Shown: in pieces, positions 44,669 through 63,027 of the stretch
How the letters are laid out: the number at the start of each line of letters is the position of its first letter
Numbering within the stretch: the first letter of the stretch is position 1
From: Stachybotrys elegans
Taxonomy: Eukaryota; Ascomycota; Sordariomycetes; Hypocreales; Stachybotryaceae
DNA length: 64,000 nucleotides
Direction: 5' to 3'
Assembly (NCBI GenBank): GCA_020746835.1
Contig: JAGPNK010000002.1
Location: forward strand, 1,612,001 to 1,676,000
The notes under the pieces: generated by a model
What the model was told of the DNA's origin: nothing
What the model saw: only the letters and a program-made list of their open reading frames with translations
Database searches by the model: none
Translations under genes and position numbers: made by a program

Positions 44669-45407
44669 ATGGCAGATAACTCTACAAGCCCAGAGTTCGA
44701 GGCCCGGATCCGACTGGCTCGCGCGGGCAGGCGACTGCTCATCTTAGGAAACATCAACTTCCTGGTGATCACCGAGGCCTTCGAAGTCGCGTGCCGGGGG
44801 CGGATGAACAACCCAGAAAACACAACGTTTCACTGGGAGCCAGCAAATGTCCCCGGCCGGCCTCATCGTGGACGAGTCTTCATTGCCTTTGAAGACCGCG
44901 AGGCGCTTGCCACAGCGCTCCCGCGTCTCGAGAACTGGCGTTACCGTGGCCGGCCCATCAGTGCAAAGCGTGCAAGCCAGGTAAGCTTCAATCATGTCCA
45001 CACATCCATCGTGCATTGCATACATACTGATCATACAGGATGCACGTGCCCAGGCGCACAGGCATGGTGCTGGTGCTGGAAATCCTCCTAACAATCAGCC
45101 TGCCGCTCTGCCCGCCGCTCTGCCTGCTGCTCTCCCTGCCGCTCCGCCCGCTGGCCCTCACCCCGCTGTTGAGCATCTTCGTGTGGCCATAAATGCCATT
45201 CTAGATGGGGCTTATCCCAATATGCCGAACCATGAGTTGGTGGCCACAGTAAATGCGATATCGACGGCTGTGTTCACAATGCTGGGCAGAAATGGTCCTG
45301 CTCCCGCTGCCAATGCCCCGGCTGCTGCCCCGGCTGGTCCTGCTCTCGCCGCCGCCGCCGCCGCCAATGCTGCTCCTGCTGTCGCTCATCCTGCTCCATG
45401 GTGGTAA
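44669..45407 (+). CDS. Island family member 1: RRM-like domain plus Ala/Pro tail
   Basis: Exons 44669-44980 and 45039-45407 give 226 residues. I know no named family. Residues 10-103 look like a divergent RNA-recognition motif: a first strand RRLLILGNINF in the RNP2 position, helix ITEAFEVACRGRM, and HRGRVFIAFEDREALATAL in the RNP1 position, closing with YRGRPISAKRAS. Aromatic residues in both RNP positions (F in FIAFED) would allow RNA contact. After the phase-0 intron come an Ala/Pro/Leu repeat (PAALPAALPAALPAAPP), a helical block HLRVAINAILDGAYPNMPNH, and an Ala/Pro tail ending PAPWW. Member 2 is collinear, and its intron is homologous (both contain ATCCATC-R-TGCATT). The shared 3' structures are listed separately. 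An RNA-binding role is inferred from the fold only. Confidence 0.72.
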
Positions 45408-45541
45408 ATCACCCACCTTGACCGCGCATCCTCAGCCTGCCGTCGAAACCATCAGCCAAAGACACATCTATAACCACGATAAGCGAGGACAAGGTCAGCA
45501 GGAAGATATAGATCACGCAGCTTAGGTCAACTCCCCCGCAT

Positions 45542-45598
45542 GTAAGCTAGCCTTCACAGCCTCCCCTACTGTTTGTCTTGACTCAACTCTTACCCAGC
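45542..45598 (+). other. 3' UTR intron of member 1
   Basis: GTAAGC donor, TTGACTC branch-like motif and TACCCAG acceptor about 135 bp after the stop. Members 2 and 3 have a matching CATGTAAG donor and TGACTC motif at the same place, so a conserved intron after the stop is likely. Confidence 0.55.
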
Positions 45599-45630
45599 TC
45601 CATAGTTGAACGCCTCCCCTCCCCCCGTTT

Positions 45631-45813
45631 GGCCTAAAGGCTTTATTCTTCACTGGCCGCAAGGTCTCATGATCTTCTTCCGGGTCTGCTGAAAGCCTCT
45701 TCTTCCTGCGGCCGAAAGGTCTTATCTTCTTCTTCCAGGCTTTTCGGAGCCTATTCTTCCAGGTCTTTAAAGACCTCTTATTCCGGGCATTGAGCCTCTT
45801 ATTCGGGTCTTTG
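45631..45813 (+). ncRNA. Tandem mini-hairpin array in member 1 3' region
   Basis: Small hairpins separated by CTTATTCTTCC-like linkers: 45631-45642 (GGCC-TAAA-GGCT), 45655-45666 (GGCC-GCAA-GGTC), 45710-45721 (GGCC-GAAA-GGTC), 45737-45752 (AGGCTT-TTCG-GAGCCT), 45761-45776 (perfect palindrome AGGTCTTTAAAGACCT), 45785-45797 (GGGC-ATTGA-GCCT), and 45805-45817 (GGGTC-TTT-GGCCC, whose last base touches the next domain). Several loops are GNRA or UUCG tetraloops. Wobbles are G-U on this strand. No reading frame crosses the array. Confidence 0.7.
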
Positions 45814-45816
45814 GCC

Positions 45817-45913
45817 CTTGGATTTATCCTAAGATCACAGGGCGCGAGAGCGTCTAGGTAGCTCCGTCAGGAGAGAATGTTCGATTCATTCTGTGATCAT
45901 TTCATAATCCAAG
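45817..45913 (+). ncRNA. tRNA-like terminal domain of member 1
   Basis: A 97-nt domain clamped by CTTGGAT (45817-45823) and ATCCAAG (45907-45913). Inside is a 66-nt tRNA-shaped core: 7-bp acceptor GATCACA (45833-45839) with TGTGATC (45892-45898); a D-like arm GGCGC-GAGA-GCGTC (45841-45854); a short middle arm CTCC-GTCA-GGAG (45862-45873); and a T-arm GAATG-TTCGATT-CATTC (45875-45891) that abuts the acceptor exactly as in tRNA. The middle loop is 4 nt, so it cannot be a decoding tRNA. Confidence 0.7.
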
Positions 45914-46452
45914 TGCTGAACGAACTGTTGTGGGGGATTGATGAACTTGGAATGCTGCAAAACGGGAATTCACTTCTCTTACTGACGAATTCCAGATGCC
46001 GGGCCGCTGATGGATGTCAAGCTTTAGCCGTGGAAGAAGGCTGTCGCGAAGGTCAGTGCCGCTGTCTGCTGATGATGAAGGCCAGTATCGCTGTCACTGA
46101 CGAAGATCAGGAGCCCCAGCTGTTGTAGAAGGCTATCGCTGCCGCCGACGAAGCCCTGGAGCAGCCGTGCAAGAAGCAGGATAGCTGCGGCTGTTGCTGA
46201 TGCGATGACAATGGCTGCACGCGAAGGTGTTGATCACTGGCTGTTGACAGGTATCAGGGCTGCCGGCGATGGCTGCTGTGCAGTATCTCTATTTTCATTT
46301 TTTATCGTATTGTGTTTTTATTTTCATTTTTTAAACTTTTTCTTTCCCCCTTTTTCGTCAGCTGGTTTTTGCACCCAACGTAGCCCTAACAACATGCCTT
46401 TACGTTCAGGGTTTACCTCTTCTTCGACGTTTCTGAGCAGCATCCAGACAGA
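45914..46452. other. Spacer with decayed imperfect repeats
   Basis: From about 46030 to 46280 there are imperfect repeats of the GAAGGCT-n-TCGCTG and GCTGTTG type, open in places but without a protein family. Probably decayed coding sequence or a degenerate tandem repeat. Confidence 0.4.
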
Positions 46453-47929
46453 ATGGCCACGCCAAGTCTCCGTCAGCAAACGTCCTTCGAAGGGATCATC
46501 GATCCCTCTGCTCATGATCGATTCGAACAGATCATGACGCATTTTGATGCTCCAAACACCAGCCCTAGTTCTCCCAGGCCCGAGTATAGCCATGTAAAGC
46601 TTATCCGCTGTACATATAATTACGCCCTGACTCTCGAGGCCAAGGGTAACCTCCTACGGGCCTTCTTCAAGGCTGTCCATCTCCCTTTGGATCAGCCAAT
46701 CGATATGATGGATCCAGCGTTTGAGGCCCGTCTCCGCCAGGATATATACGATTACGCAGACTTCTTATTCAACAACTTCTTCCTCCCAAGTATGTTATTA
46801 CTTCGGTTCCCACGCAGTCCGAGGACCTCCGCCGGCATCACGCACCTTCGGCCAGCCTTGTCGGAGCACCAAAGAACAGGATCAAACAATGAAGGGATCG
46901 TCACAATCACCCGTTCACCGGAGCCAGAGAACAACGAGAGGGCAGCGGCAGCGGCAGCAAAAGCGTATGTATTCGGGGGACCTGCGGTTAGCAGACTCGA
47001 TTACATACAGTTCGTCGGCCTGCCATTACGTGTGTTCTGACGAGGCTGGCCGTGTCCTGCGGGTAGCAAGGCCGCTATTGTTCTTTTCCCTCGCTGCACG
47101 CACCTGCTCCATCATTATTTCTTATTCATCTCTAACCTTTCTTCTATAGTGAGAGCAAGCGGACCTACTCCTCAATCTTCAAACTGTTCATGCCAGTCTC
47201 AGACAGAGGATACAGACAGACGAGACCCAACTCTTCGTGAGCTATGTCTCGAGCGCGATAAGAATCGATGCATAATATCAGGTGCCTTTAATTTGGACGA
47301 GGCAGAAAGGCGATATAAGGAGCACCCGAATTCACCATGCGACGATGATGGGAGGCCTCTTACTTCTTGCAGGGAATTCCATTTCCTGGAGGCAGCCCAT
47401 GTCTTGCCGCATTCCCTGGTACAGGAGGGAAAACCGGTATGGTATATTATTTGCTTTAAAAAACTTACTAATAGTTGTCTAGGACCCGCTCAAGAAAACT
47501 GCTCTTGACATTCTGAAAATGTTAGGCACTATAGAATGTACTGAGCTGGACCGTCCTCGAAATGTCATCACCCTAACGTATAGCATGCATCGGTTTTTTA
47601 GCAATTTCGATGTCTTTCTTCAGCCAGGACAATCTCCGTATGAATATCGCATTGGAAGCTATCTTCATCCAGTTATACGCCGGAATTTCTCTATACCATC
47701 CACCAAAACAATCTACCAACACGGGGGAATAGAGGCTCCCTCATCTCGACTACTGGAAATACACGCGGCCATAGCACACATATTGGAACACTCTGGAGCA
47801 GGACGGTACATCGACAAGATACTTCGAGATCTGGACGAGGTTGGTATTAGGGCAGACGGGTCTACTGAGTTGGGTCGCTTGGTGGAGGCTCGATTGCAAG
47901 GATGGCCACTTGGTGTCCGCAATGGCTAA
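46453..47929 (+). CDS. HNH nuclease domain protein (fungal HNH_2 type)
   Basis: Exons 46453-46789, 46818-46964, 47150-47436 and 47483-47929 sum to 1218 nt, 405 residues. The HNH_2 domain begins near residue 180: LCLERDKNRCIISGAFN, then FLEAAHVLPHSL with the first catalytic His, and NVITLTYSMHRFFSNFDVF with the Asn and final His. These lineage-specific HNH proteins are numerous in filamentous fungi and are often near repeats; their biological role is not established. The N-terminal half is a helical region plus a basic Gln/Arg stretch (RGQRQRQQKR). The domain residues are intact, so the gene could be functional. The 28-nt first intron is unusually short and the second, at 185 nt, is long, so the exon 1/2 region is the least certain. 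Confidence 0.75.
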
Positions 47930-48091
47930 TGTGACAAGGCGGCCGATGCCTCCATCTCTGATCGAGCCACGGGCAGAGGCTTTTCGGCGGGCATTGTCAC
48001 GGAAGCTTCCGACCGATTCTTCCTCGCTGTGACCACAGCTACAAGCGCAGACTTCTGTCAAGTGGTGGCTATTGATTTGATATCATCTTAT

Positions 48092-48206
48092 CGTTCTTCG
48101 TCGCCTTCGTCTTCGTCACCTTCGTCACCCTCGTTCTTCGTCTCCTTCGTCTCCTTCGTCTCCTTCGTTCTTCGTCGCCTTCGTCTTCGTCACCTTCGTC
48201 ACCTTT
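48092..48206. repeat. TTCGTC-based hexamer/nonamer tandem repeat
   Basis: Imperfect repeats of TTCGTC, CCTTCGTCT and CACCTTCG, immediately before the helicase fragment. Likely slippage-derived. Confidence 0.85.
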
Positions 48207-48227
48207 GTTTTCTATATCGACCTTCTT

Positions 48228-48999
48228 TTGGCGATGCTGAAGAAGACCACCCAGGATCAGAAAGATTTCAAGGTATACCTTCCACATCCTTCTAACCCTG
48301 ATTCTATGCTAACATTGGCACAGGTCGAAATCATGTCGGCCACCATGGACGCGGGCCTTTTCCAGAAATACTTCAATCAGTGCCCACCCATCGCTATCAC
48401 GGCATATTTTATCGTCAGACGGCGCCTCCTCGAAGTCGCTGGTCCGTATCCCATTGTGACACAGGTTGATCTTGTGCCTTCTCGTTTCCCTCCCTGGAGA
48501 AAATGAGATCAAAAGGGTTTGTGACATCGTCAATGAGGTAGCGGGCAATATCGAGGCCTGGCCGCTGTATTCCGCGTTGCCTGGAGGGGCTCAACATCTT
48601 GCACTGAACGATGCAGGACCTATGCGGAAGTGTATCGTCTCAACCAACATTGCCGAGACCAGTTTGACGATTGACAACGTTGTCTACGCTGTGGATTCTG
48701 GAGTATCGAGGCAGATGGTCTACAATCCTCGCCTGAACATGCACATGCTTCGCGTCCTCCCCATCTCGCAAGCATCAGCGAAGCAGCGCGCAGGCCGAGC
48801 GGGACGAACGAAGGATGGCCTCTGCTTCCGGCTTTACACCGAGAAAGCCATGGAAAGTCTGCCCGTGTCAAACCAGCCAAGTACCCTCACGGCACCGTTT
48901 CATAACGCGGCTCTACGACTCATTGCTGCTGGATACAGAAAGCTGGGAGACTTTTATTATATCACAGCACCTCATCCAGACTTAATCACGCGTGCCTGA
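48228..48999 (+). pseudogene. Fragment of a DEAH-box RNA helicase (Prp22/Prp43 type)
   Basis: The piece starts at LLKKTT, just before helicase motif III (IMSATMDAGLFQKYFNQCP after removing an intron at about 48273-48324). It lacks motifs I and II (Walker A, DEAH). A frame change follows near 48390-48480, where the expected linker is replaced by unrelated residues. The frame then resumes with SLPGENEIKRVCDIV, STNIAETSLTIDNVVYAVD and motif VI QASAKQRAGRAGRTKDG, and ends after ITAPHPDLITRA. The C-terminal ratchet and OB domains are missing. With half of each RecA domain gone and an internal shift it cannot be an active ATPase. It is probably a relic of a duplicated spliceosomal-type helicase gene. 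Confidence 0.8.
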
Positions 49000-49844
49000 G
49001 ATATCGTATGGGCATCTGACTTCAACACTTACTATATAGTTTCCTGGATTCTGTTGGCCTAAATTCAGCATCACTGTACTCGGCATTGTTAATTACCCAG
49101 ACAACAGTAGTGGCTTGACTGTTCATCGAGGGAGGGATATGTTAATTAAGCGAAGCTGGAAAGTTCTCGTTAAACTATTTGGTGCCTTCAACCTTGCCGG
49201 CAGCCCTCGTCCTAAACTTTTTCCACGGCCAAAGCTCGAGACCTTCATGAGTGGCAGCTGTGGTTAGCTTTAGCTGGCAATCTGATGTGGGCTCAACTCC
49301 CAGCATTGCTGGCTATTATATTACAATTGAGCGAGAGGATATGTGAACGTACCATTCACCAACGCTGATCTGACGTGTCTTGTCAGGGCTGGTCATAAGC
49401 AACGTACTGAGCCCAAGGTACCGAGATCAAGAAGCTTGGCATACCCAGACTGAGTCAACGAGGACGGATACTGTCGCACAGCCAGTGGAAGGCTTCAGAC
49501 TGGGGAGGCTAACTTGCACAATATATGATGCACTTCATGAGGGCGGGGACTGCAGAATAATGAATCGTCTATAATAAAATGTCAGCAACAGTGGCAGGTC
49601 TACCAGGATGAGTGGTGAGGTAGGCTATGGGTGTAAAGTTTTAGGCTTGAACGGTGAAGATAGCATCAATAGAGAACAAAACCAACCAGAGCCCTAGAGA
49701 GCTTTGTCGCACCAAAGACATTCGATTTCCAAAGGCTTATTGTGCCAATATACCTTTCAGACTGGACGGAGGACCTGTAGATCCAATCAAGGATTGTAAA
49801 TGCAAAGTGATCATCATCGCAGCCAACAAGAGCTACCGGTAAAA
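49000..49844. other. AT-rich intergenic region, no gene seen
   Basis: Between the helicase relic and the tRNA-like domain of member 2. Only short open frames; nothing recognised. Confidence 0.5.
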
Positions 49845-49940
49845 CTTGGATCTTGGAATGCAGTGCAAATCGAATGCACTTCTCAAGAAGGCCGAAGCCC
49901 AAGTGAGACCACCAGGGCAGACTTAGGATATAAATCCAAG
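49845..49940 (-). ncRNA. tRNA-like terminal domain of member 2
   Basis: A 96-nt domain. Reading the minus strand it is clamped by CTTGGAT (49940-49934) and ATCCAAG (49851-49845). The T-arm GTGCA-TTCGATT-TGCAC (49879-49863) has a stem unlike those of members 1 and 3 but pairs perfectly. Upstream are small arms GGC-TTCG-GCC (49899-49890) and TTC-TTGA-GAA (49889-49880). The regular 7-bp acceptor of the other copies is not seen; a 5-bp CTTGG/CCAAG pairing (49903-49899 with 49856-49852) may replace it. Confidence 0.6.
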
Positions 49941-49967
49941 GAACCATAAGGCACCTGCAGCAGGCCT

Positions 49968-50165
49968 GAGCCTAGCAAAGGACCAAAGCCCAGCAAGAGA
50001 CCAAAGCCTACAGAAGACCTAAGCCTGGCAGAGGAGAAAAAGGCCTCGCGGCCAAATGTCTCAAGGCGAAAGCCCAGAGGAGTACCTGTGTAGAGCGAGA
50101 GAAGGACCTCGTGGTCTCGGGGGTCCCCCCCCCTAAAGTGTTTTGATGAAACGGAAAGGCCGTTT
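49968..50165 (-). ncRNA. Tandem mini-hairpin array in member 2 3' region
   Basis: Hairpins read on the minus strand: AAACGG-CCTTT-CCGTTT (50165-50149), GACC-ACGA-GGTC (50116-50105), GGGC-TTTC-GCCT (50075-50064), GGCC-GCGA-GGCC (50053-50042), AGGC-TTAG-GTCT (50026-50015), AGGC-TTTG-GTCT (50009-49998), GGGC-TTTG-GTCC (49991-49980), and a TCAG-loop hairpin near 49970. Wobbles are G-U in this sense and would be A-C on the other strand. Confidence 0.65.
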
Positions 50166-50216
50166 AGCTTTGAAGGTTTGTCAGAGTCAAGACAACAACA
50201 GGAAGGCTTACTTACA
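50165..50216 (-). other. 3' UTR intron of member 2
   Basis: On the minus strand CATGTAAGTAAG is followed by TCTTGACTCTGAC and a TTCAAAG acceptor, about 42 nt after the stop. This matches the introns after the stop of members 1 and 3. Confidence 0.5.
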
Positions 50217-50257
50217 TGCATTTCGACCTTTAGTCCTCTCAAATAATTTCGTCTTCT

Positions 50258-50972
50258 TCATCGTCGTCGGTTGGTGTCATAGAACCATCGTATTTCTCCA
50301 GCAGGATCGGCAGCGGCAGCATTGGCGGCGGCGGCAGGAGGAGGACGAGCGGCAGCGGCAGCAGCAGCAACAGGAGGAGGAAGAAAAGGAGGAGCAGGGT
50401 CTACGCCCATGATTGCGCTCATCCTGACATGAATCGTGGCGAGAATAGCCTGAATCTCATTGGGTGCCATATCGGCACGTGAATCAAGAATGGCAGCGGC
50501 AGCGGCATAAGCAGCGGCAGCGGCTGCGGCATGAGCTGCGGCAGCGGTGGGAGGAAGAGCGTCGGGGGCATTGCCGTGACCAGCGCGTTGATCGAGGACT
50601 TGGGCTTCCGGACGCTGTACCTCTTGTTAGTGCTGGAAATGCATGATGGATATATTTAAAACATGCCCTGGCTGCTTGGTTTGCAGTGATTGCCCTGTTA
50701 CGGTACCACCAACCCACGAGAAGTTGGAGCGCTGCGGAAGCCCTCTCGCGACTCTCGAAGGCAATCCAGACTCGTCCGCGATGACTTCGATTTGGGGCGT
50801 CTGCTGGTTCCCAAGAGAATTGCGCGTCTGCTGGGCTGTTCATCTGCGTCCGACACGCAGCTTCAAACCTCTCGGGGCTCTCCCGATAGGGAATATTCCC
50901 TATCATAAGCAGTCGTCTACTTGAGCGAGCCAACCGAATCCGGGCCTCGAATTCTGCGCTTGGTGGTGCCAT
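50258..50972 (-). CDS. Island family member 2: RRM-like domain plus Ala-rich tail
   Basis: Exons (minus) 50972-50667 and 50620-50258 sum to 669 nt, 222 residues. The RRM-like part is collinear with member 1: FEARIRLARSSRRLLMIGN, then FEAACRTQMNSP, then HRGRVWIAFESRERASAAL and WYRNRAITANQA. The intron (50666-50621) has a GC donor (GCATGT) and a GAG acceptor after CACTAAC; with it both exons join in phase 0, without it exon 1 runs into an unrelated frame. Exon 2 encodes an Ala-rich stretch, the helical block ILDSRADMAPNEIQAIL, which aligns with members 1 and 3, and a Pro/Ala tail ending WFYDTNRRR. The GC donor could lower splicing, so the product may be rare. The role is unknown; an RNA-binding fold is inferred. 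Confidence 0.65.
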
Positions 50973-51013
50973 GATGATAATTTTGTTGTTGTTGTTGTTT
51001 TGGATGCGTGAAT

Positions 51014-51052
<39 letters not shown>

Positions 51053-52082
51053 TGGAATGGCGTGTTTGCAGTGTGGTTGTAGGTTCTTTTGGAGGAAAGG
51101 GAAAGAAGAAGGAAGAAGACGAGTGGGAGCTCTGACCCCGGTCACTAAGCGAGCGCTTGTAATGGTCCCTTTATTGTTTGGCTCTGTTACATGAACTTAG
51201 TAACTCAATCTTCTCTCATACCAGCTCCCATCTTTGCCCCTGTGCGGACTGCATATCCAACAGTATGGATCAGTGCTTGACAGCTGCAAGCAGGCAACAG
51301 CAAACTGAGAGCAAACAGAGGGGAGGTGAGCGCGAGAAGTAAATCACGTGTTTCTTGACACACAGAAGAAGCACCAAACTTCTTATTTAGGGCCAATGGA
51401 GGTTTTTACAAACTTGGATGCTCGGCTGGCAGCACCTGGCATACATGCCTCTTGCTATGCAAAGGCACACATTGCAGCAAGCACACCAGATTACAGGTGC
51501 AATGAGGATACAAGTACCCTACAAGGCCTGGCCCTTTAACTTAATCCCGAGGCCTACAGCACACCGCAATGTTCGAAACAACAGCACAGCATGGCCAGAT
51601 AACACGCAGGGAACAACCGCCTCGCTATACAGCCATACACTAGACTATACAAGCTGGCAGTGTAGCTACTGTATGTTTGCAATTAGGTATACAAACTAAT
51701 TGCAAAGTACTTGCAAGTGATGTATTATGTGTTTGACGTCCTACACTGCACGTCCCCGGTGCCAAACTTACTGCGGGTCACGTGTAGTTCCTGTTTGTTG
51801 CAACCTCCAGGCGATATGCCAATGCATCAACTCGATATTCTGTGAGGCCTGAGTTGTATTGATAGAATATTATTAAATTTTCTAATGCTCCGTGCTTGTA
51901 TGGAACAATAGGAACACCCTTCACCAACCTCTGGCATCTTTCGTGGTGATCAACTCGAGTTTCACAATCAGACAGATCGTTATGTCATATCATTTCATTA
52001 ACTAATCTGATACAAGACACTAAACTATGACAAAGGAAAGCTCATCGCGGTCATATCGCCTTCAAAACAGATGTTCCCCATC
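50973..52082. other. Intergenic; leader of member 2, no other gene seen
   Basis: Next to 50973 is the CA-rich leader of member 2: AAC triplets at 50984-51000 and (GT)18 on the plus strand, that is (CA)18 in the transcript. The remainder to 52082 is AT-richer with no recognisable gene. Confidence 0.55.
51015..51051. repeat. (GT)18 microsatellite
   Basis: Lies in the leader of island family member 2, read as CA repeats in the sense direction. Confidence 0.9.
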
Positions 52083-53335
52083 TTACAATCCGTGGTGTCC
52101 CTCCCGGCGGGTGTGACCGTTGTATGCCGCATTCGGAGGGCCAACATGCTTCTGCAGGACCGACGGTGGCACCTGAGCAGCATCCGTGGGATCCCTGTGC
52201 ATCATGCCATCGGTGTTTGTTCTGGGCTACCGTCAGATATCCATTCCTTGGGCCGCCCCGTGGCACGATGCGCGTGCGCATGTTTCGCAGATGCCACTTA
52301 CTGGCGGGAGTAGGTCTTGTCGCGGCCGAGGGTCTTTGAACCGTCCATGTCCGAGTCGACCTTTGGATCAATTGAATTGAGCATGTCGGACTTGTGAGGG
52401 CCTGCCGTGTTTGGCGCAGGGCCGGGACCGCTGTTGTTGAAGCCGGTGCCATGGGCGCCATGGGCAAGGCCAGAGGTGCCAGTGGTGGTGTTGACATTGC
52501 TATTGCGAGTGTTTGAAAGATCACTGTCCGTCATTGGGTCGACTTTGTTTGCAATGTTGGAGCTGTGCGGGCCTGCAGTTCGTGAAGCCGGGCCAGGGCC
52601 GCTGGCATTGTAGCCGGTAGTACCGTGGGCGGTAGAGTGGCTGTTAAGACCGGAAGTGCCCGTGGTGTGGGCGTTACTAGTCAGCCCAGTGGTTCCAGTC
52701 GTGTTAGAGCTGCCTGTGCGAGGGTCCAACTTGTTCATGGTGTTGGAGTTGTGGACAGGGCCGGTGCCGTGGGTGGTGGAGTGGCTGTTAAGGCCGGAGG
52801 TGCCCGTGGTGTGAGTGTTACCAGTGAGGCCGGTGCTGGTGTCAGTAGGCACACGGGGATCCAACTTGTTAGCGGCGTTGGAGTTGTGAACGGGGGCGGT
52901 GCCGTGGGTGGTTGAGTGGTTGTTGAGACCCGAGGTGCCGGTGGTGTGAGTATTACCAGTGAGGCCAGTACCGGTACCAGTGTTGGTACGAGGATCCAAC
53001 TTGTTGGCTGCGTTGGAGTTGTGGACAGGGCCAGTGCCGGTGGTGTGGGAGCCAGTGAGGCCAGATGAGGTGTTGCCTCCATAGGTGTAGTTATCACCAG
53101 ACGTGTATGTGCCGTCATGAGCGCCAGTGGTTGTTGTGTGTGCAGCCCGGCCGTCCCGGTCACTATCGATCCTTGGATCAGCTGGTAGCAATTAGCAAGA
53201 GCTTCCATGGGAAGAGATAAGTTGGTTCATACCGGCATTTCCGACTCGTGAAGCGTGCGGACCGTGTGACCCCTCCGGGGCCGAGGCCTTGTTGGGGGTG
53301 ATGGCGTCCTTAACCTTGTGAACGATGGAAGACAT
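52083..53335 (-). CDS. Hydrophilic LEA-like repeat protein
   Basis: Exons (minus) 53335-53233, 53181-52302 and 52221-52083 sum to 1122 nt, 373 residues. It starts MSSIVHKVKDAITPNKAS and carries repeated units built on GPHxSNxANKxDPR: GPHASRVGNAADPRIDSDRD, GPVHNSNAANKLDPR (three close copies), GPHSSNIANKVDPMTDSD and GPHKSDMLNSIDPKVDSD, separated by Gly/Thr/His/Asn-rich linkers (TGLTGNTHTTGTSGL). It has no Cys, no signal peptide and no membrane segment. Such proteins are often named 'cell surface protein' or LEA-like in related fungi and are induced in spores and stress, acting as cytosolic protectants; the function is not proven. The third exon is supported by phase and by its content (DAAQVPPSVLQKHVGPP). 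Without it the frame stops at a TAA overlapping a perfect GTAAGT donor. Confidence 0.78.
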
Positions 53336-55310: not shown

Positions 55311-57193
55311 TTGACTGTGGATTATGGAATCCAGACAAAGGAAAGAGGAAGCCCGCGATATGGAAACATGCCCGGATAGCCTAGCATGTACAAGGCAGAG
55401 ACATGATACACTCGCGGTCCGCTCAAAAGAAAAGGTGACCAACGACGGAAAGGAAAGGAAAAGGAAAAGGGAAAGGAAACATGAACCAACAAACAACCAA
55501 ATGTCTGTGCCAGACGGGCCGGGCAACAAGTTATTATAACCCCCTCGACAAGCTTTTCGCTGCCCGACTGCCTTGCCTCGTCTACGCCGTCACCACCCAG
55601 GAGCTCACGGGCTCCCGCAGGGCCGTTGCCGCATGTTTCTGCCCGTTGAAACAAGGCTAGAGGCGGCGAGCCCATTGTGTCCCTTCAGCTACCACCGCCT
55701 CTACTCCACGAAACGGGAAGGGTCAGCCTGTGCCGTCGTCCATACGCCTCAGAACGGACGCGGCTGGCCAGGCTCTCTCTCACGCTTCTGCTTCTGACAC
55801 AATGCAGGGTGTGTCTTGGCTGGAGCGGCGCAGCCAGCCCAGTCCAGAATGGGCGAGAGAGGAGCGGCCGGTGGGGCCCATGTGCCGTTTGAGGAAGCTC
55901 TCGTCTGATATTTGCGGTGAAGGGCAGCCCATAGCATACGAATCTCGGTGCGTGGGATGCAAAGGCAGGCCGAAAATGGGAAAATTGTCTGCGTTTAATT
56001 ACGGCTTATTCACCAGCATTGGTGATTGCGGTGCACCGGAGCAAGTGCGACCTGCTCTGCACTTTCCGTTGTACACATGGTAGGTGTTTCCTGCGAGCAG
56101 CCAATCCAGTCCTTTGACTTAGGCTCAATCACATAGAGAAAAAATTTTTAGAAAAAAAAATCGTCACGATGCAAATTCTGGAGACTCTTGGCCGAAACAT
56201 CTCGGAAAAGTTTCATCCCAGCCTCCTACGATTCTTGACCTTCTCGAAAGGAAAAGAGCAGCGTGGTACGCATGGAGACATTTCCCGCGAAATGAGACCC
56301 TGCATCTCTGCTATTTTTAACCCACAACCCCGGCCGGATTGGATCTGTTTGATTGCCTGGCGTGGCACGGAAACATTCTGGGGGAATCCATGGTCTTTGC
56401 ATCTGTATCCTATCTACCACGCGTCAAAGTAAAACACAAAGAAGAAAAGACAAGCAGAATGCGCATGTCGACAGAGTAAGCATTGTGAGGCTACCGTCCA
56501 TACCTTTAACTCACAATGCCTTCACGACGCGCACGCGATCACCAAGGTACATTATAACAGAAGAATAAGGTAGATCATCACGTCCAGAAATTAAATTGCA
56601 TTCTTGCTTCTATTCACATCGTAGCTCATTTGGCTGTGCCTTTTCCCGCGCGGGTCTCTTCGACCACGCCCCAACCGTCCTTGACAATTGGATCGCACAA
56701 AATCCAAGGAACCGTATAGATAGATACCAATATCGCTGCAATGGATGTTGCGCATTGACAATTTTGTGCCCCGGAATATAATCTCGCTGCTGACTTCCAG
56801 CTTCCTTCCAACTCATTCTGCATGTACAATGTAGGGCCATTTCCGATATGCGTTATTATTATTCATCTATGCGGGGTGACCCAGCTCGTTCCAGGTACAC
56901 GGACCGTCATCTCAGTAACGTCATCCCCTACCCTATACAGATCATCCAGAGTTGACACAGAAACAGTTCAACGGCCTGCCGACAGGGCACAGCGACAGAA
57001 AAGTCGTTCAAACAAAATGATTTGGGATATTATGCTTGTCTATGTGCCTGCAAACACCGCCAGTAGCCCAGTGTCCTAATGTTCTAGTACAACACCGGTA
57101 CAAACACCATGCGCCATGAATGCCCCGATGTCCTGGAAATGCGGATGCGACTTTTTATTCCATCAGTTTGCCACTCCATCACTTGCATAACAA
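55311..57193. other. 1.9 kb intergenic region, no gene seen
   Basis: Upstream of the MARVEL gene. An A/T tract with A9 occurs at 56140-56162. Several open frames, none with motifs. Confidence 0.5.
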
Positions 57194-57637
57194 TCACCGG
57201 TGCTCCGTGCTATTCCCTTGAACGAAATCTACCACCAGCAACGAGTCAACAATCTCCCACGATCTCTCAATGAGCGTGCCGTCCTCGGTCGTGATGAGGA
57301 TAAACTGGTACTCGTTGCTATAGGGCCCCAAGTCCGTCATGCCCTGGCCGAAGGCGTGCATGGAAACCATCCGCTGCTCCTCGTCGATGAACATGGGCGG
57401 GCTGTCCGTCATGTTTAGAGACCAGTCGCGCAGGCCCGGCACCAGCCCGCGCAGAAGCCCGACGACGGCCTCGTTGGGCAATTCGGGGGGTCCGCCAAAG
57501 GCCGCCGTCCGAGGCAGGACCGTGTGTAGGGCGTCGGGGGTTCGGCCGTTGAGGAAGACTTCCGGACCCGTGTAGTTGTTCAGATTCGCAACAAACGACA
57601 GGGCCGTGTTGGCGAGGACGGTTCGGAGACAAGCCAT
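57194..57637 (-). CDS. SnoaL-like (NTF2-fold) protein
   Basis: Single exon, 147 residues from MACLRTVLAN. The pattern fits a small NTF2/SnoaL-like fold: a first helix ending LSFVANLNNYT, a middle part with GLVPGLRDWSLNMTD, strands RMVSMHAFGQGMTDLG and YQFILITTEDG, and a terminal IERSWEIVDSLLVVDF. Family members act as small-molecule enzymes or as binding proteins in metabolism; residues for a specific reaction are not obvious. It lies on the same strand as the AidB-like dehydrogenase about 790 bp upstream, which could reflect a shared pathway, but the gap is too large to claim co-transcription. Confidence 0.75.
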   Translation of the reverse strand: MACLRTVLANTALSFVANLNNYTGPEVFLNGRTPDALHTVLPRTAAFGGPPELPNEAVVGLLRGLVPGLRDWSLNMTDSPPMFIDEEQRMVSMHAFGQGMTDLGPYSNEYQFILITTEDGTLIERSWEIVDSLLVVDFVQGNSTEHR

Positions 57638-58427
57638 CTTGTAGGTTGGTGGTTTGGCTCTTGAGATGGAGGAGACGGATGGCAGTATTGGGCTTGGGGA
57701 TAGACTTCCAGCTCACGACTGCGCGCACATATATAGGAATGCAAGACGCCGAAGCCAGTGCACGACACCACCATATCGGAGATGGTCACTGTAGCTATTC
57801 CCAGCAGCGTGATAAATCCGAGCCGCCTTTCGCTTATACAATACCCAGTTAATTGCCTCCTCTGACCGGGCTTTCCGCATAAGCTCACCCAATAGTTTGT
57901 CGCATTCGGCTGGCCATCTCCGACAGAGTCCGGCTTCTCCATGCTCTTGCATCGCCAGCTAATCTCAGACTAACACTGCCCTTTGTATGCGGCTGAGGCT
58001 CGGCGGAATCCCAATTGTCTCACCAGCGCGTGGAATTGCCAGTCACGGGCAAGAGCCGCGAGGAATGCTCCGCTGCGCATTACGTTAACGCGATAAGCAG
58101 GGCACTTGATTTGGCTGATCGTCGGCTTACTTTTCACCGAACTAGGGATTCCCGACTTCTGTATCAATGGATATGGTAAGCATGACTCTGCTCACTTCTT
58201 TCTCAGCATATAAACATGTCAAGGCTGTAGGCAGTCCTTTGTTCATAGAACCCTCCAAGATGTTGACGATCCAACTGGAATAGAAATGATGTGCTCGATA
58301 CCTGTCTATTAAAAGGTCTGTCTGATCAAGTGGACGATATCGGATACCGCGGGATTGACATATCGAATGCAACAATCCAATATCGCTAAAGATAGCCGAA
58401 CAAAAATGCTTCGACCCCCGCCGATTA
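57638..58427. other. Intergenic region, no gene seen
   Basis: Promoter of the SnoaL-like gene and 3' flank of the AidB-like gene. Nothing else was recognised. Confidence 0.55.
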
Positions 58428-60379
58428 TTAAAGTTTGGATCCTTCCCACTTCTCCCCATAAACAATGGACTGGTTTACCAGCAAGTCGTGTCGGGTGTTG
58501 GTGCCCCGAAACTTGGCCTCGATGAAACGGGCAAAGACCTCCTGGGCCGTGGCGTCGCGAGCGTCGACGTATAGCAAGAGACCGACCAGTAAATCTCCAA
58601 CCTCCCACAGAATCTCTCTAGCATGGGGCATGAGGGTTGCTTGATCCTGGGAGGATATCCGATTCCTCAATGCGTTCCAGCGATTGATTGGGTCCCAGTC
58701 ATGTTTCTGGTTGGGCTTGTACATCTTACCAATGATGTGATCCAACGCATCGAGGCTTTGGCTTCCGGGATGTTTGAGGGCCCGGACGAAATCAGTGCTC
58801 AGCACATCCGTGGTGCCCTCCCAGATAGGCAGCACACAGCAATCGCGGAAGATGCGCGAAATGTTGAGGTACTCCTGTTCCTCGTTCCAGAGATATCCGA
58901 CGCCACCCACAGCCTCCATGCAGGAGAAAACAAGTGGTACCGCCGCTTTGCAAACGTACGCTTTGGTGAGCTGTGCCAATACTCTGATCAGAGGCAGTGC
59001 ATGCTGGGATGCCGGCGTGAGGGCTTGGAGATTGTCAGGTAAGCCGGCAGTATCGTATTCGCTGTGCTCAGAGATGCCGAGAATATAGCTGGTCCAGAAC
59101 GTGAGCCTCATCAAGCCACTGTATTCAGCCGTCATCTTGGCAAGAGTCGCCATGTGAAGCGGTGTCTGATCCAGTCGAACCCGTTGGCCCTTGCCGGCAC
59201 CAATCTGTCGCACGCGGGCAAATGCGCGTGCTATGCCGAGGCTTCGACCGACGTATCCCATCGCAGCAACCGCCGAGTGTACTCTGGTTATAGTCAAAAC
59301 ATGGCTTATCTCTTGGATCCCCCGGCCCTCCTGGCCTATCATCCAGCCACGCATATCTTTCAACACGAGCTCCGCCGTAGGGAGCGACTGAGTGCCAAAC
59401 TTGTTCTTTAGACGTGAAATGTAGACGCCGTTGAGCCTTGTGCCATCTGCCCGTGGGCTTCCAGCTAGTGTTGTCGCGTTGTGATCGGGGAGTCTGAGCG
59501 GGGCGACAAACGCCGACAGGCCAAGGTCAGGTCGCGTTCGTGCCAGGAGAACCGTCATGTTGGCATCGGTCGCAGAAGAGAACCACTTGAACCCGCTGAT
59601 GCTCCAGGGTCCTTGAGTAGCCGGCGACACATCTTCATTTGGCTGGTACGTGGCAACCGTCTCCGTCTGCGAAACGTCGCTTCCACCACTGCGCTCCGTC
59701 ATCCATTGTCCGCTGGTCCAGGCATATCCCAGTGTGGAGGAGGTGAGGCGGGCGAATGCATCCCCAAAGACCATTCGCTGAGCTGTCGTGAGCTTGTTGG
59801 TAAGATCAGGAACGGTGAGATGAAGTTGGAGAAGACGGGCAGCACCATCTTGCATAGCCGAAGGGCAGGTAACATTTGCACATGATCCCTCCCACAGATG
59901 AAGACGAAGAAATTCCAGAGGCCTTGCAAACGGACCCAGATTCTTGTCGTAACCAACACCAACGAACCTGCCACAGTCAGTCCCATACGGCACGATGTAA
60001 TGGGCGTTACTTGCCCTCGAGAGAGACCAAAGTTCTGGAGAGAGCGCCAGCCTTCGCCAGTGACAAGCTCGCCTCTGTGCTCTCCAAAGGCGCCGCGCCC
60101 GGACCCTGATACATAGGGTTTGTTCCTTTCTGCATCCCTAACCCAGGAAAATACTTGGTCTGACAGCACATCTTTGCCAAGCGTTTTGACCTCGTCCCGC
60201 CATTGGGCAGCTACCTCGGGGGAAAGGAATACTGAGTACGTTAGTTAAGGGTGGGTGGTGCGTTGCTGGAACCGGTACCTACGATTGTAACACCTTTGGA
60301 AGACGGTATCGTCATCAAACTGGTTGTTCAGAACTGGGGGGCTCTGGAAGAAGCCCGTGTCGGCACTGGCAGGCTCCAT
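58428..60379 (-). CDS. AidB-like acyl-CoA dehydrogenase
   Basis: Exons (minus) 60379-60283, 60231-60015 and 59967-58428 sum to 1854 nt, 617 residues. The N-terminus TGFFQSPPVLNNQFDDD is typical of the AidB-type branch. Core motifs are LWEGSCANVTCPSAMQDGA, then the flavin/substrate loop WMTERSGGSDVSQTE, SGFKWFSSATDANMTVLL, the helix NISRIFRDCCVLPIWEGTT and EAVGGVGYLW. Bacterial AidB is a flavoprotein induced by alkylation stress; fungal relatives are poorly studied and may oxidise unusual acyl substrates. The second intron (60014-59968) uses a GC donor (GCAAGT) and joins SRG to FVGVGYDKN in phase. Reading through it instead gives a stop. The gene appears intact, probably FAD-dependent and peroxisomal or cytosolic. 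Confidence 0.85.
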
Positions 60380-60856
60380 GACGGGGTTCTTGGTGTGGGG
60401 AGACGGAGATGGAGGAGGGAAATGGACAAGCCGCTCCAATGTATCGGGCGCTTCATGTGCTGATAACGTGCCCAAGCACAAGGCGAGGAGCAGACGGTGG
60501 CTTGTGATCAGAGTAAGCCGCAGCCAGCATTATTTCCCCGTCCGAACGTCCCTCTCCCATACAATGTGTTGGTTGACCAGGTTGTCGGATATGCTGGCGC
60601 CATGCAGTCAGTGGGACCATCTGACGACGCAGGCAAGAAGTGCGGAGATGTGGGGTTGGAAAGAGCACATGGTCCAGTTAGGCAGGAGGCGCGGAACCAA
60701 TTCCGGAGCAAACTCCATGTCTCCATAATGAGGTTATACGCAAGATGTACTGTAGGGTAGGGAGATGTGCAGATTGATGCAGAACTCCAATATCCCGATG
60801 AGGTGGTGACTGTGTATTGCTAATTCCTACTCATTCTGAACCGAAACCCGCATCAT
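60380..60856. other. Intergenic region, no gene seen
   Basis: Upstream of the AidB-like gene and downstream of the AT-hook-like gene. The AidB frame stays open upstream of 60379 without an ATG. Confidence 0.5.
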
Positions 60857-61735
60857 CTACTCATGTGGAGAGTCCTCCAAACCATACCCTGGATCGCCGA
60901 GCATGGTCCGATATAGCTCCATCCGTTCCTTTTGAAGTTCTGCGAGTCTGGCGATAACTGCTCTATCGTTTTCCATCATCGTCAAGATACGATCCATGAT
61001 GATACGATTGTTTCCCGTTGGAGAACCCTGAGCTGGCTGAGAATTCGTCTCGCCTCTTTCCGACCGAAGGAGAGGCTGAGGTTGCTCTTGAAGCACCAGT
61101 GATGGCGTTTGTCGTCTCTGGTGGTAATCTTGATCGATGGTATCGACCACGCATCCGCCTGAATCGAGGCCCATGTCCAATTCTTCATTGCCCAAATCAT
61201 CAGCATCCTGATTCTTCACTAGCTCTTCTGGTATCTGTTAATATGAATTTTGAAGCGCGAGATAAGACACATACGCGTTTGATTGCCAGTGGCGATGGTG
61301 ACTTGGTCTGGATGCCGGTTCATTGCTAAACTGTAATTGCAATAAGTATTAGGGTAGCCTAAGCCCCATGGAATGTGCTTCAACTTACTACTCGGCGTTC
61401 AGCCTGCTCCGAAGTGAGACCTCAAGGTGCTCTCTTTGCTCGGCACTGGAGTGTTCCTATTCCTCAGATGCCCGCAACTTGATGAGACGTCTCGCTATAG
61501 TTTTGTTCAATGCCGCACGCCGGTTTTCCTTCTCTCTTACATCAGCGGGCAGATTCACCCGGCGCTGTCGCGCCTTCTTCGTATTGGGATTCTCCGACAA
61601 CATCTCGTCTGCCTTCCGCTTGCAATACGGAGCGCCTGGTGGTCTGCCGCGTTTTCTAGGCATCGCACCTAGTGTTCTGTCAGCTTCATCATGGCATGTT
61701 TCACATACATAATACTGACTCTCTTGTTCGGCCAT
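60857..61735 (-). CDS. AT-hook-like basic / coiled-coil hypothetical protein
   Basis: I do not recognise the family. Proposed exons (minus): 61735-61541, 61456-61389, 61330-61275 and 61227-60857, 690 nt, 229 residues. Near residue 25 is an AT-hook-like RKRGRPPGAPYCKRKAD. A middle part EHSSAEQREHLEVSLRSRL and a C-terminal helix DRILTMMENDRAVIARLAEL with LQKERMELYR are coiled-coil-like. The first intron is 84 nt, in frame, and ends exactly at a TAG that would otherwise stop translation at codon 93. Its sequence also looks coding (basic helix ENRRAALNKTIARRLIKL), so retained and spliced forms may both matter. It could be a small nuclear DNA-binding protein or a domesticated transposon protein. 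The start could also be the downstream MPRKRG. Confidence 0.55.
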
Positions 61736-62236
61736 TCTGATAAGCGGGTGGATTTGTGAAGGTGAAGGGCGATGGTGTTTTGTATTGTGGACGTATGTGC
61801 CGCAAAGGTGCCCTTGATAGGCCTTCGTATTGCCCGAAAGCATCCACGCATGAAGATTGGCTTCTGTGAAGAGCACGAACCGTGAATCGACCGTGCTGGA
61901 GGTGCATTTGTGCTTCAGCCCCTCTTGGAGGATCATGTACCATATATGCCAGGTGCTGCCAGCTGAGTATACAAGTTTACAGAAACCTGCTCCCTGAGCC
62001 CTAAATAAGAAACCCTACGAAGCACACAACATATGGTTCCTCTTTTTTATCTAGGTACTAACTCTGCACTTAGACTCCTACATTCACAAGAACCACAAAC
62101 ACACACACCCGCATCCACGCAAACACACACGCGCGCGCATACGTCTAAGAGACTCTTACAAGCCACCGACAAGCACGCGAGCCTCTCTTTCTAATCCACT
62201 GCCCATACCTACGCTAACTAATCATCAGTATCCAAC
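61736..62236. other. Intergenic; CA-rich leader of member 3
   Basis: The last 150 bp before 62237 holds CACAAACACACACACCC and CGCGCGCGC stretches, resembling the CA-rich leaders of members 1 and 2. No exon encoding the RRM-like domain was found here. Confidence 0.55.
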
Positions 62237-62614
62237 ATGTCTGACTCTGCTGCCCGTCACCCTGCTGCTGCGTCTGCTATTGCGGCCGTCTCAGCCATTC
62301 TCAACGACGCTCGCTCAGATATGTCCCCTGACGAGCTTGCGGCTCTTGTCGCCTCTGCATCTGCCGCGATGAGGACTATAATGTGCGGAGACACTGCTGC
62401 TGCTGCTGCTTCTCCTCCTTCTCCACCTGCTCCTGAAGCCGGTGCTGGTGCCGGTGCTAGTGCGGGCGTTCCCCCTCCTGCCGGTGCTGGTGGTGCTGGT
62501 GATGGTGATGGTGCTGCTGCTCCCGTCAGGGTCTCATGGGCCGATGACGGCCCGGATAGGCAGCTGAGGAAGTATGTGGACGAAGACGAATATGAAATCG
62601 AGTACGATGATTAG
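62237..62614 (+). CDS. Island family member 3: tail domain only
   Basis: Single exon, 125 residues from MSDSAARHPAAASAIAA. It lacks the RRM-like part and keeps the small helical block AVSAILNDARSDMSPDELAA followed by AALVASASAAMRTIMCGD, aligning with member 1 (AINAILDGAYPNMPNHELVA) and member 2 (ILDSRADMAPNEIQAIL). A Gly/Ala/Pro region (AGAGAGASAGVPPPAGAG) and an acidic tail (YVDEDEYEIEYDD) follow. The downstream intron, hairpin array and tRNA-like domain are shared with the other members. It is either a truncated paralogue or a short family form; the clean frame and ATG suggest it can be translated. Confidence 0.65.
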   Translation: MSDSAARHPAAASAIAAVSAILNDARSDMSPDELAALVASASAAMRTIMCGDTAAAAASPPSPPAPEAGAGAGASAGVPPPAGAGGAGDGDGAAAPVRVSWADDGPDRQLRKYVDEDEYEIEYDD

Positions 62615-62630
62615 GTCAACTACCTTCATG

Positions 62631-62684
62631 TAAGTCGCCATTCACAACCCTCCCCTACCGTTGTCCTGACTCTTATCGAGCTTC
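62631..62684 (+). other. 3' UTR intron of member 3
   Basis: CATGTAAGT donor 15 nt after the stop, CCTGACTC branch-like motif and ATCGAG acceptor, matching the position in members 1 and 2. Confidence 0.5.
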
Positions 62685-62786
62685 ATAGCTACACGGTCTC
62701 CATAACATTGTCGAAAAGCCCTAGCAGCGGAGAAAAAAAAGGAGAGAAAAAAAAGAGAGAGAAAAATTGAACAAATAAAATAATCT

Positions 62787-62933
62787 GCCGCAAGGCGTTC
62801 TTATTTTCTATTCGGTCGCAAGGCCTTAATTTATTTTCCGGCTGTAAAAGCCTCTCCCGGTTGCAAAAGCCTCTTCCAGCCGCAAGGCTACTTATTCAGG
62901 TTCAGTCCTCTTATTTATCAGGTCCTTTGGTCC
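62787..62933 (+). ncRNA. Tandem mini-hairpin array in member 3 3' region
   Basis: Hairpins: GCC-GCAA-GGC (62787-62796), GGTC-GCAA-GGCC (62814-62825), GGCT-GTAAA-AGCC (62840-62852), GGTT-GCAAA-AGCC (62859-62871), AGCC-GCAA-GGCT (62878-62889), AGG-TTCAGT-CCT (62898-62909) and GGTCC-TTT-GGTCC (62921-62933, one T-T mismatch). The GCAA loop recurs. Compared with member 1, the stem GGCC/GGTC is here GGTC/GGCC, a pair-preserving change. Confidence 0.7.
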
Positions 62934-63027
62934 TTGGACATATATCCTAAAGGTCATAGGGCGCGAGAGCGTCTGGCTGCTCCGTAAAGGAGAGAGTGTT
63001 CGACTCACTCAATGACCAGAATCCAAG
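62933..63027 (+). ncRNA. tRNA-like terminal domain of member 3
   Basis: A 95-nt domain clamped by CTTGGA (62933-62938) and TCCAAG (63022-63027). The core is 66 nt as in member 1: acceptor GGTCATA (62952-62958) with AATGACC (63011-63017), six of seven paired; D-like arm GGCGC-GAGA-GCGTC (62960-62973); middle arm CTCC-GTAAA-GGAG (62980-62992); T-arm GAGTG-TTCGACT-CACTC (62994-63010). Offsets of the arms within the core equal those of member 1. Confidence 0.7.

What the first reader, a model, noticed from the sequence alone, without database searches (positions are those of the whole stretch)
44669..63027. Gene family with a shared post-stop RNA architecture: intron, hairpin array, tRNA-like end
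Three loci (44669-45913 plus, 49845-50972 minus, 62237-63027 plus) have the same order: family coding exon(s), stop, intron of about 50-57 nt, tandem mini-hairpins, then a 95-97 nt clamped domain with a tRNA T-arm. Primary sequence has drifted strongly, yet order, lengths and pairings persist. Such conservation of structure over sequence suggests a functional RNA joined to an RRM-like protein gene. The protein might bind its own hairpins, or the tRNA-like end could be a processing or replication signal, which would make the unit a mobile or self-regulating cassette. I know of no described fungal element of this form.
Basis: partly seen in the sequence, partly recalled or inferred. Interest (0 to 1): 0.92.

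Follow-up and report, generated by a model that had tools for sequence, protein, structure and literature searches.

The report
Fungal mRNAs with tRNA-shaped tails
Two clusters of fungal genes, many of them for small RNA-binding-type proteins, carry after their stop codons a row of tiny RNA hairpins that often ends in a fold imitating a transfer RNA; similar rows also occur where no such protein is encoded, which may point to an undescribed way of making or protecting RNA ends.

Summary
The window lies in Stachybotrys elegans. All three loci have ORF, stop, intron-like stretch, mini-hairpins and a clamped domain; two fold as cloverleaves, the third keeps the T-arm but has a weak acceptor. I found 11 more array modules in a second cluster (contig C4, about 532-579 kb). 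Arrays end in one of three folds: tRNA-like type I (7-bp acceptor, tetraloop D-arm, 5-bp T-arm with UUCGANU loop), tRNA-like type II (same acceptor/T core, one long arm), or bulged stem-loop type III. Pairings covary (acceptor/T core: 26 two-sided changes against 9.8 in shuffles), and models built from some copies found unseen ones. Of 14 modules, 5 follow RRM genes, 3 truncated family ORFs, 2 an orphan protein pair, 1 a broken HNH-like ORF, and 3 no family ORF. Between C4c and C4g similarity peaks over array end and TLS and drops after it; between window copies 1 and 2 it does not. Function is inferred: most likely a 3'-end processing/protection module using tRNA machinery (MALAT1-like), with RRM proteins as probable binders. 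I found no sign of mobility. No transcript data were available.

The parts
44669..44980 (+). copy 1, exon 1: RRM domain
   Evidence: gene model; profile and fold
45039..45407 (+). copy 1, exon 2: Ala/Pro linker, helical segment (by eye), C-terminal Trp, stop TAA 45405-45407
45542..45597 (+). copy 1, intron-like stretch after the stop (GTAAGC...CCCAG, 56 nt; 64 nt if the next AG is used)
   Evidence: inferred from sequence only
45631..45817 (+). copy 1, mini-hairpin array (two GNRA-capped), 24-nt period at 45728-45812
45816..45913 (+). copy 1, terminal domain, outer clamp CCTTGGAT...AATCCAAG
45833..45899 (+). copy 1, tRNA-like structure type I: 7-bp acceptor, GAGA-loop D-arm, short arm, 5-bp T-arm with TTCGATT loop, then A
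50667..50972 (-). copy 2, exon 1: RRM domain, 56% identical to copy 1
50168..50216 (-). copy 2, intron-like stretch after the ORF (49 nt)
   Evidence: inferred
49954..50053 (-). copy 2, mini-hairpin array; 18-nt tandem period at 49969-50025
49845..49941 (-). copy 2, clamped terminal domain
49855..49922 (-). copy 2, divergent type I tRNA-like structure: perfect T-arm, 4 of 7 acceptor positions pair
62237..62614 (+). copy 3, ORF of 125 aa without the RRM exon; ends in a Trp motif and acidic tail
62630..62688 (+). copy 3, intron-like stretch after the stop (59 nt)
   Evidence: inferred
62785..62933 (+). copy 3, mini-hairpin array; 19-nt tandem period at 62838-62885
62932..63027 (+). copy 3, clamped terminal domain
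62952..63018 (+). copy 3, tRNA-like structure type I

Best explanation
This is a multi-copy RNA module of Stachybotrys elegans, placed at the 3' end of transcription units. SHOWN BY SEQUENCE: it consists of a row of mini-hairpins, often capped by GNRA or UUCG tetraloops, followed by one of three covarying terminal folds: tRNA-like type I, tRNA-like type II, or bulged stem-loop type III. It lies on the sense strand behind RRM-protein genes, behind an orphan protein pair, and in units with no family ORF. INFERRED: the tRNA-like fold, whose 7+5 bp acceptor/T stack, UUCGANU loop and, in 6 of 8 copies, A after the acceptor are what RNase P, RNase Z and the CCA enzyme read in tRNAs (recalled), serves as a 3'-end processing signal. 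RNase P would cut before the acceptor (8 of 8 copies have AA there) and RNase Z after it. The transcript would then end in the hairpin array, which would hold off 3'-to-5' exonucleases and serve as a landing array for proteins, most plausibly the RRM proteins of the same clusters. Type III would be an alternative 3' signal.
For: Strict scan of 224 kb: 8 tRNA-shaped acceptor/T-arm units, namely 6 of these domains, a tRNA-Asp gene and one further tRNA-shaped unit; 20 block shuffles gave 0-2, mean 0.35. Covariation: core 26 two-sided cells against 9.8 shuffled (0 of 500) in 9 of 12 pairs, slid 1-4; type II 7 of 21 pairs, slid 0-2; type I 13 of 18, slid 0-2; type III 5 of 13, slid 0-1. Unseen copies found by models: C4f 53.5 bits, E 4e-10; C4l and C4m 55.8 and 56.7 bits. 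tRNAs score far lower in R2: 15.3 bits for the genome's own tRNA-Asp, at most 28.6 in 80 viral loci. In 7 of 8 domains the tRNA-like fold is within 0.7 kcal/mol of the best fold. C4c/C4g: 47-48 of 50 identical over array end and TLS start, 43 in the rest of the TLS, then 31, 23, 20. The same module follows the orphan protein B0I35DRAFT_412072. RRM confirmed. C4b's domain scores 25.7 bits against Rfam tRNA (cut-off 29).
Against: No transcript, 3'-end or protein-binding data, and no copy could be sought in other fungi. The number of core pairs with two-sided change (9) is reached by 38 of 500 shuffles (mean 6.9), and numbers of pair types are unremarkable for types II and III. Copies 1 and 2 show no conservation peak at the TLS; their RRM exon is the better conserved part. 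The hairpin before the TLS is not stronger than background (P 0.12). Counts of all hairpins are not clearly above shuffles. Copy 2's acceptor is poor and C4d's has 5 of 7 pairs. With the whole array, copies 2 and 3 do not fold to the cloverleaf. Two of seven RRM genes (C4a, C4e) show no module by eye. Eight of the eleven C4 modules lie within about 20 kb, so relatedness inflates the counts.
Confidence: 0.45

Rival explanations
1. The tRNA-like end is not cut off but kept, and with the array acts as a poly(A) substitute for stability and translation, as the pseudoknot-plus-TLS 3' ends of tobamo- and tymoviruses do.
For: Same layout of an upstream structured domain then TLS; passages on viral TLS function. 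Several terminal folds on one scaffold, as expected for an end-protecting part.
Against: No 3' CCA directly after the acceptor in the DNA and no full anticodon arm; whether tails are added is unknown.
Confidence: 0.2
2. Autoregulation is the main function: the RRM proteins bind their own mRNA arrays to control translation or form RNP granules; the tRNA-like fold is a passive end cap.
For: RRM profile and fold; arrays in cis to RRM genes and in the same clusters; tandem hairpins suit multivalent binding (inference).
Against: Modules also sit on non-RRM genes and ORF-less units; C4a and C4e encode RRMs without a module seen; no binding data.
Confidence: 0.2
3. The conserved feature is DNA: a Pol III B-box (GTTCGANTC) acting as TFIIIC site, insulator or remnant of tRNA genes behind the genes.
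For: Three type II copies contain GGTTCGATTCC; a tRNA-shaped unit lies behind C4a.
Against: Compensatory changes through acceptor and T stems outside the box; type III has no such box; the 8 type I/II domains all lie on the sense strand of the ORF before them; ARAGORN calls none of the 8 a tRNA.
Confidence: 0.08
4. A mobile or retro-replicating cassette in which the TLS is the replication start, as in Neurospora mitochondrial retroplasmids.
For: Similarity of C4c and C4g drops at the TLS end; several copies, some truncated.
Against: Confident members only in two clusters in the whole-genome searches; the RRM genes keep an intron. Target-site duplications and a linked reverse transcriptase were not tested.
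Confidence: 0.05
5. Chance folding plus recent duplication, with no selection on RNA.
For: Few copies, clustered, related by descent; copies 1 and 2 are better conserved in the coding part.
Against: Two-sided changes against slid controls; model hits above 50 bits to unseen copies; C4c/C4g better conserved in the RNA part.
Confidence: 0.04

Closest known systems
MALAT1/NEAT1 3' ends (mascRNA/menRNA, Rfam RF01684)
   Same: Long transcript ending in a protective RNA structure followed by a cloverleaf with 7-bp acceptor, T-arm, small D-arm and few linker residues (part 1 of 2 of PMC11693755, passages of PMC12941219).
   Different: Fungal, behind protein-coding genes, many copies, hairpin array instead of triple helix, other loci with a non-tRNA fold; no RF01684 match in this genome. 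RNase P use not shown.
3' tRNA-like structures of plant RNA viruses (tymo-, tobamoviruses)
   Same: Structured upstream domain plus terminal tRNA mimic at an mRNA 3' end (passages of PMC10976276).
   Different: Chromosomal genes with introns; no CCA encoded after the acceptor; no Rfam match at gathering threshold; one exact type I and one exact type III pattern absent from IMG/VR.
Ordinary tRNA genes
   Same: Acceptor/T-arm geometry; C4b scores 25.7 bits in Rfam tRNA.
   Different: Below the cut-off, no ARAGORN call for any of the 8 domains, no anticodon arm of normal size, D-arm replaced by a tetraloop hairpin or absent.
Neurospora mitochondrial retroplasmids (recalled; search listing only)
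   Same: tRNA-like 3' end in a fungal RNA.
   Different: Mitochondrial and reverse-transcriptase coding; not compared here.
RRM proteins (Pfam PF00076)
   Same: beta-alpha-beta-beta-alpha-beta order, RNP1-like strand (motif recalled).
   Different: Members score below Pfam's cut-off; RRM followed by an Ala/Pro linker and, in several, a Trp/acidic tail; no relatives outside this species found (capped).

Membership tests
mascRNA/menRNA (RF01684) | match to the family covariance model | tested here: not met
   none in the whole genome at E<=10, 68 of 9579 first-look candidates scored
mascRNA/menRNA (RF01684) | tRNA-like cloverleaf with 7-bp acceptor and 5-bp T-arm, short D-arm, few linkers | tested here: met
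   type I copies C12-1, C12-3, C4b against the description; type II lacks a D-arm, C12-2 lacks a proper acceptor
mascRNA/menRNA (RF01684) | cut by RNase P and RNase Z | not testable with these tools
   needs RNA
mascRNA/menRNA (RF01684) | triple helix just upstream | tested here: not met
   hairpin array instead, by eye only
tRNA gene (RF00005) | reaches tRNA model threshold or ARAGORN call | tested here: not met
   best 25.7 bits against cut-off 29; none of 8 loci called (bacterial setting)
plant-virus TLS | match to an Rfam TLS family | tested here: not met
   no Rfam match at gathering threshold; at E<=1 in 7 loci only a tRNA row and a snoRNA row; at E<=5 near copy 1 six chance-level rows of other families
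plant-virus TLS | 3' CCA and aminoacylation | not testable with these tools
   no CCA encoded directly after the acceptor; charging needs RNA
mobile element / SINE | dispersed copies across the genome | tested here: not met
   type I pattern 3 of 3 hits in the two clusters; loose type II pattern 19 hits (reversed control 14), 4 are modules and the other 15, fetched, show none in the model
mobile element / SINE | target-site duplications | not tested
   no empty site available
RRM (PF00076) | profile match above Pfam cut-off | tested here: not met
   4 of 7 members match with E<=1, best E 0.067; the members whose bits I saw lie below the cut-off
RRM (PF00076) | RRM fold | tested here: met
   profile of 7 finds RRM chains, best E 1.5e-9; AlphaFold best model pLDDT 76.7, the other four 47-63, 2-row alignment; Foldseek best hits RRMs, E 3.4e-5

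The most novel reading that the evidence does not exclude
A dedicated, previously undescribed RNP system of a fungus: a fast-evolving RRM protein family together with a family of hairpin-array RNAs, mRNA-borne and ORF-less, whose 3' ends are interchangeable modules. Two of the modules imitate tRNA so that the tRNA-processing machinery makes the ends of protein-coding mRNAs, and the RRM proteins coat the arrays in place of poly(A)-binding protein.
Probability: 0.25. Interest if true: 0.95.

Novelty: categorically new. Interest (0 to 1): 0.84.

Why it matters
[quoted passage not shown] A fungal family in which tRNA mimics sit at the 3' ends of protein-coding genes, alternate with another fold and share a scaffold with ORF-less RNAs would suggest that this kind of 3' end can evolve in mRNAs, and would give a tractable system to study it. 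My searches of the held library listed no such fungal element; that is a limited search, seen as listings.

Tried and rejected
Whole-genome covariance-model search was not possible, so copies outside the fetched 224 kb could only be sought by pattern, DNA or protein; distant ones may be missed. C34 protein hit (E 0.06) rejected: two stops inside the match and no type II match in its locus; its own identity was not tested. C1 hit of the copy 3 protein (E 0.16) not followed. A two-hairpin GNRA pattern gave only C4b and C4h genome-wide. The loose type II pattern gave 19 hits against 14 for the reversed control; the 15 outside the modules were fetched and scored, best E 0.54. The mascRNA family search found none; it rang below cut-off in all 14 control genomes, so it is weakly informative. 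Terminal-hairpin strength was not significant. Folds of whole 3' ends show the cloverleaf only in copy 1. Domains folded alone: the best fold of C4b differs from the cloverleaf but by 0.7 kcal/mol. Protein searches: one search scored only the 7,994 candidates sharing most words and found not even this genome's own proteins, only 7,995, and the queries hold low-complexity stretches, so absence from other species is not firm.

Selection effects told: rows of A10 were cut by me as acceptor and T-arm pieces, with acceptors chosen for pairing, and copy 2 was left out (7 of 8). A6 and A12 are fitted to their models. A3, A4 and A11 used structures drawn by me. The strict scan misses copy 2 and C4d and used mononucleotide block shuffles. 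No shuffle control was run.
Full report
WHERE. The window is bases 1,612,001-1,676,000 of contig C12 of a 43.4-Mb, 61-contig genome. A protein from a second cluster matches a Stachybotrys elegans record exactly, on a contig of the same length as C4 (contig length). Below, C12-1, C12-2, C12-3 are copies 1, 2 and 3 of the finding; C4a to C4m are loci on contig C4.

CHECK OF THE OBSERVATION. The order ORF, stop, intron-like stretch, hairpin array, clamped domain is present at all three places. C12-1 and C12-3 fold as cloverleaves inside an outer clamp, z -3.85 and -2.20 against dinucleotide shuffles. C12-2 has a perfect T-arm but only 4 of 7 acceptor positions can pair; it scores 22 bits, E 1.6e-4, in the type I model, and its own best fold is not the cloverleaf. 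Folded with the whole array, only C12-1 keeps the cloverleaf. C12-3 lacks the RRM exon.

THE PROTEINS. Exon 1 of the family is an RRM: a profile of 7 members finds RRM chains in the PDB, best E 1.5e-9; the best predicted model of C12-1 has pLDDT 76.7 with the RRM order of elements (other four models 47-63), and its best Foldseek matches are RRMs, E 3.4e-5. Pfam alone is weak: 4 of 7 members match RRM_1 at E<=1, best 0.067. C12-1 and C12-2 exon 1 differ with dS 0.74 and dN 0.32, so the protein is constrained but evolves fast. Own-genome searches find 7 RRM exons, 2 in the window and 5 on C4 at 534-560 kb (an eighth hit of E 0.06 on C34 was rejected). My spliced models of C4b and C4c agree with the NCBI proteins B0I35DRAFT_463212 (100% over 242 aa) and B0I35DRAFT_412078 (identical). 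No relatives outside S. elegans were found (within their candidate limits).

MORE COPIES AND THREE KINDS OF END. C4b carries a type I domain like the window copies; C4c and C4d carry a second tRNA-like form, type II, with an acceptor and T-arm of the same size but one long two-part arm and a conserved GGCA in the linker. Model R2, built from C4c and C4d, found C4f at 53.5 bits, E 4e-10; a DNA search and R2 found C4g. C4f lies behind a 350-aa orphan protein; no Pfam family matches it and it finds no RRM exon in the genome. Its only paralogue found, C4h (34%), has GNRA hairpins but no T-arm hit. A scan of 224 kb for clusters of tetraloop-capped mini-hairpins recovered 6 of the 9 modules then known and three new ones, C4i, C4j, C4k; 18 other clusters of two or three hairpins look like background, and no shuffle control was run. 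C4h, C4i and C4j share a bulged stem-loop, type III, z -3.25, -5.19 and -2.97. Model R3, built from these three, found C4l and C4m at 55.8 and 56.7 bits and a weaker copy (29.2 bits) just behind the type I domain of C4b. In all, 14 array modules lie in the two clusters: type I at C12-1, C12-3, C4b and, degenerate, C12-2; type II at C4c, C4d, C4f, C4g; type III at C4h, C4i, C4j, C4l, C4m; C4k unassigned. By what precedes them: RRM genes 5 (C12-1, C12-2, C4b, C4c, C4d), truncated family ORFs 3 (C12-3, C4g, C4j), the orphan pair 2 (C4f, C4h), a broken HNH-like ORF 1 (C4k; likeness by eye), no family ORF 3 (C4i, C4l, C4m). Two of the seven RRM genes, C4a and C4e, show no module by eye.

UNITS WITHOUT ORF. 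C4i, C4l and C4m have an array and type III end but no family ORF. They share an upstream block with GGCCCATAAAT; in the 224 kb scanned, exact matches to these 11 bases occur only at these three places, and five other places match with one mismatch (alignment). They look like separate RNA genes; this is inference.

EVIDENCE FOR SELECTION ON THE FOLD. The acceptor/T core of 7 domains: 26 two-sided cells against a shuffled mean of 9.8 (0 of 500 shuffles), in 9 of 12 pairs (shuffled mean 6.9, 38 of 500 reach 9), covariation score 0.837 against at most 0.198 in slid controls (C12-2 left out, acceptors chosen by me for pairing). Type II, 4 rows: 7 of 21 pairs, shuffled 3.1, slid 0-2; pair types 10 against 8.9, no excess. 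Type I, 4 rows, fitted alignment: 13 of 18 pairs, shuffled 6.1, slid 0-2. Type III, 6 rows, fitted alignment: 5 of 13 pairs, shuffled 2.4, slid 0-1. A strict scan for an acceptor of 6-7 bp, a 5-bp T-arm and a TTCRANY loop finds 8 units in 224 kb: six of these domains, a tRNA-Asp gene and one more tRNA-shaped unit that ARAGORN in its bacterial setting does not call, against 0-2 in 20 block shuffles. In 7 of 8 domains the fold with acceptor and T-arm lies within 0.7 kcal/mol of the best fold, and is the best in C12-3, C4c, C4f, C4g. tRNAs score far lower than module copies in R2 (15.3 bits for the tRNA-Asp; at most 28.6 in 80 viral loci). Along C4c/C4g identity is 10-38 of 50 in the coding windows, where a deletion in C4g adds gaps, 47-48 of 50 over array end and TLS start, 43 over the rest of the TLS, then 31, 23, 20. 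C12-1/C12-3 also peak at the TLS (37 of 50); C12-1/C12-2 do not, their RRM exon (30-38) being better conserved than the RNA part (at most 28). In the eight type I and II domains the two bases before the acceptor are AA; the base after it is A in six and C in C4b and C12-2.

EVIDENCE AGAINST OR NEUTRAL. Counts of all hairpins of at least 4 bp are not clearly above shuffles in single modules; only tetraloop-capped ones are. The hairpin before the TLS is not stronger than background. Rfam has no match at its thresholds; the best is tRNA at 25.7 bits, below 29. One type I and one type III pattern are absent from IMG/VR, so no viral source was found.

HOW IT MOST LIKELY WORKS. The conserved part of the tRNA mimic is what tRNA end-processing enzymes read (recalled), while the anticodon part is reduced, much as mascRNA and menRNA depart from tRNA. 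MALAT1 and NEAT1 carry a tRNA-like fold that RNase P and Z cut out, after which the new 3' end folds into a protective triple helix. The layout here is similar: hairpins, then tRNA mimic, with conservation dropping behind the mimic in the closest pair. I therefore favour 3'-end formation or protection by tRNA machinery, with the arrays bound by the RRM proteins. Rivals are a retained TLS as in plant viruses, autoregulation as the main role, a DNA B-box role and mobility; the last two fit poorly. Nothing here shows a transcript end, a cut or a binding event.

NOVELTY. I searched the held papers for tRNA-like structures in fungal or cellular mRNAs, mascRNA, viral TLS, retroplasmids and tandem hairpins in Hypocreales and saw no such element in the listings. 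With three covarying ends on one array scaffold, shared by coding and ORF-less units, I rate it categorically new, while saying that its tRNA-like ends are a known kind of mimicry.

Noticed in passing
C4 contig 569549-568538 and 552427-551969 (loci L014, L012): Three ORF-less units with a shared promoter-like block (GGCCCATAAAT), hairpin arrays (one with seven UUCG hairpins, 19-nt period) and a type III end; candidate ncRNA genes.
   Followed up: partly
L013 4145-4102 (-): C4b carries both a type I tRNA-like domain and, 11 nt behind its model match, a weak type III stem-loop (29.2 bits), so two terminal folds stand in a row.
   Followed up: partly
L014 7683-6573 (-) and L010 8547-7498 (-): A second orphan protein family (34% identical pair) whose C4h member ends near GLSWDLPF, by eye the same Trp motif as in the tail of RRM protein C4c.
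   Followed up: partly
window 47041-47929; L023 1000-2150; C4 contig about 555.5 kb: HNH-endonuclease-like genes (motif recalled, not searched) lie beside modules in both clusters, one of them broken next to C4k.
   Followed up: no
window 48460-48999: Fragment resembling a DEAH-box RNA helicase (motifs recalled, not searched) between copies 1 and 2.
   Followed up: no
window 38437-38504: ARAGORN tRNA-Ala call inside a coding-like ORF; probably false, not tested.
   Followed up: no
C4 contig about 550130 (-): tRNA-shaped unit not called by ARAGORN, possibly an intron-bearing tRNA gene, about 0.8 kb behind the ORF of RRM gene C4a, which lacks a module.
   Followed up: no
window 50620-50667: Copy 2's coding intron has no GT donor at the homologous site (by eye); a GC donor or a damaged gene is possible, and its acidic tail lies in another frame.
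   Followed up: no
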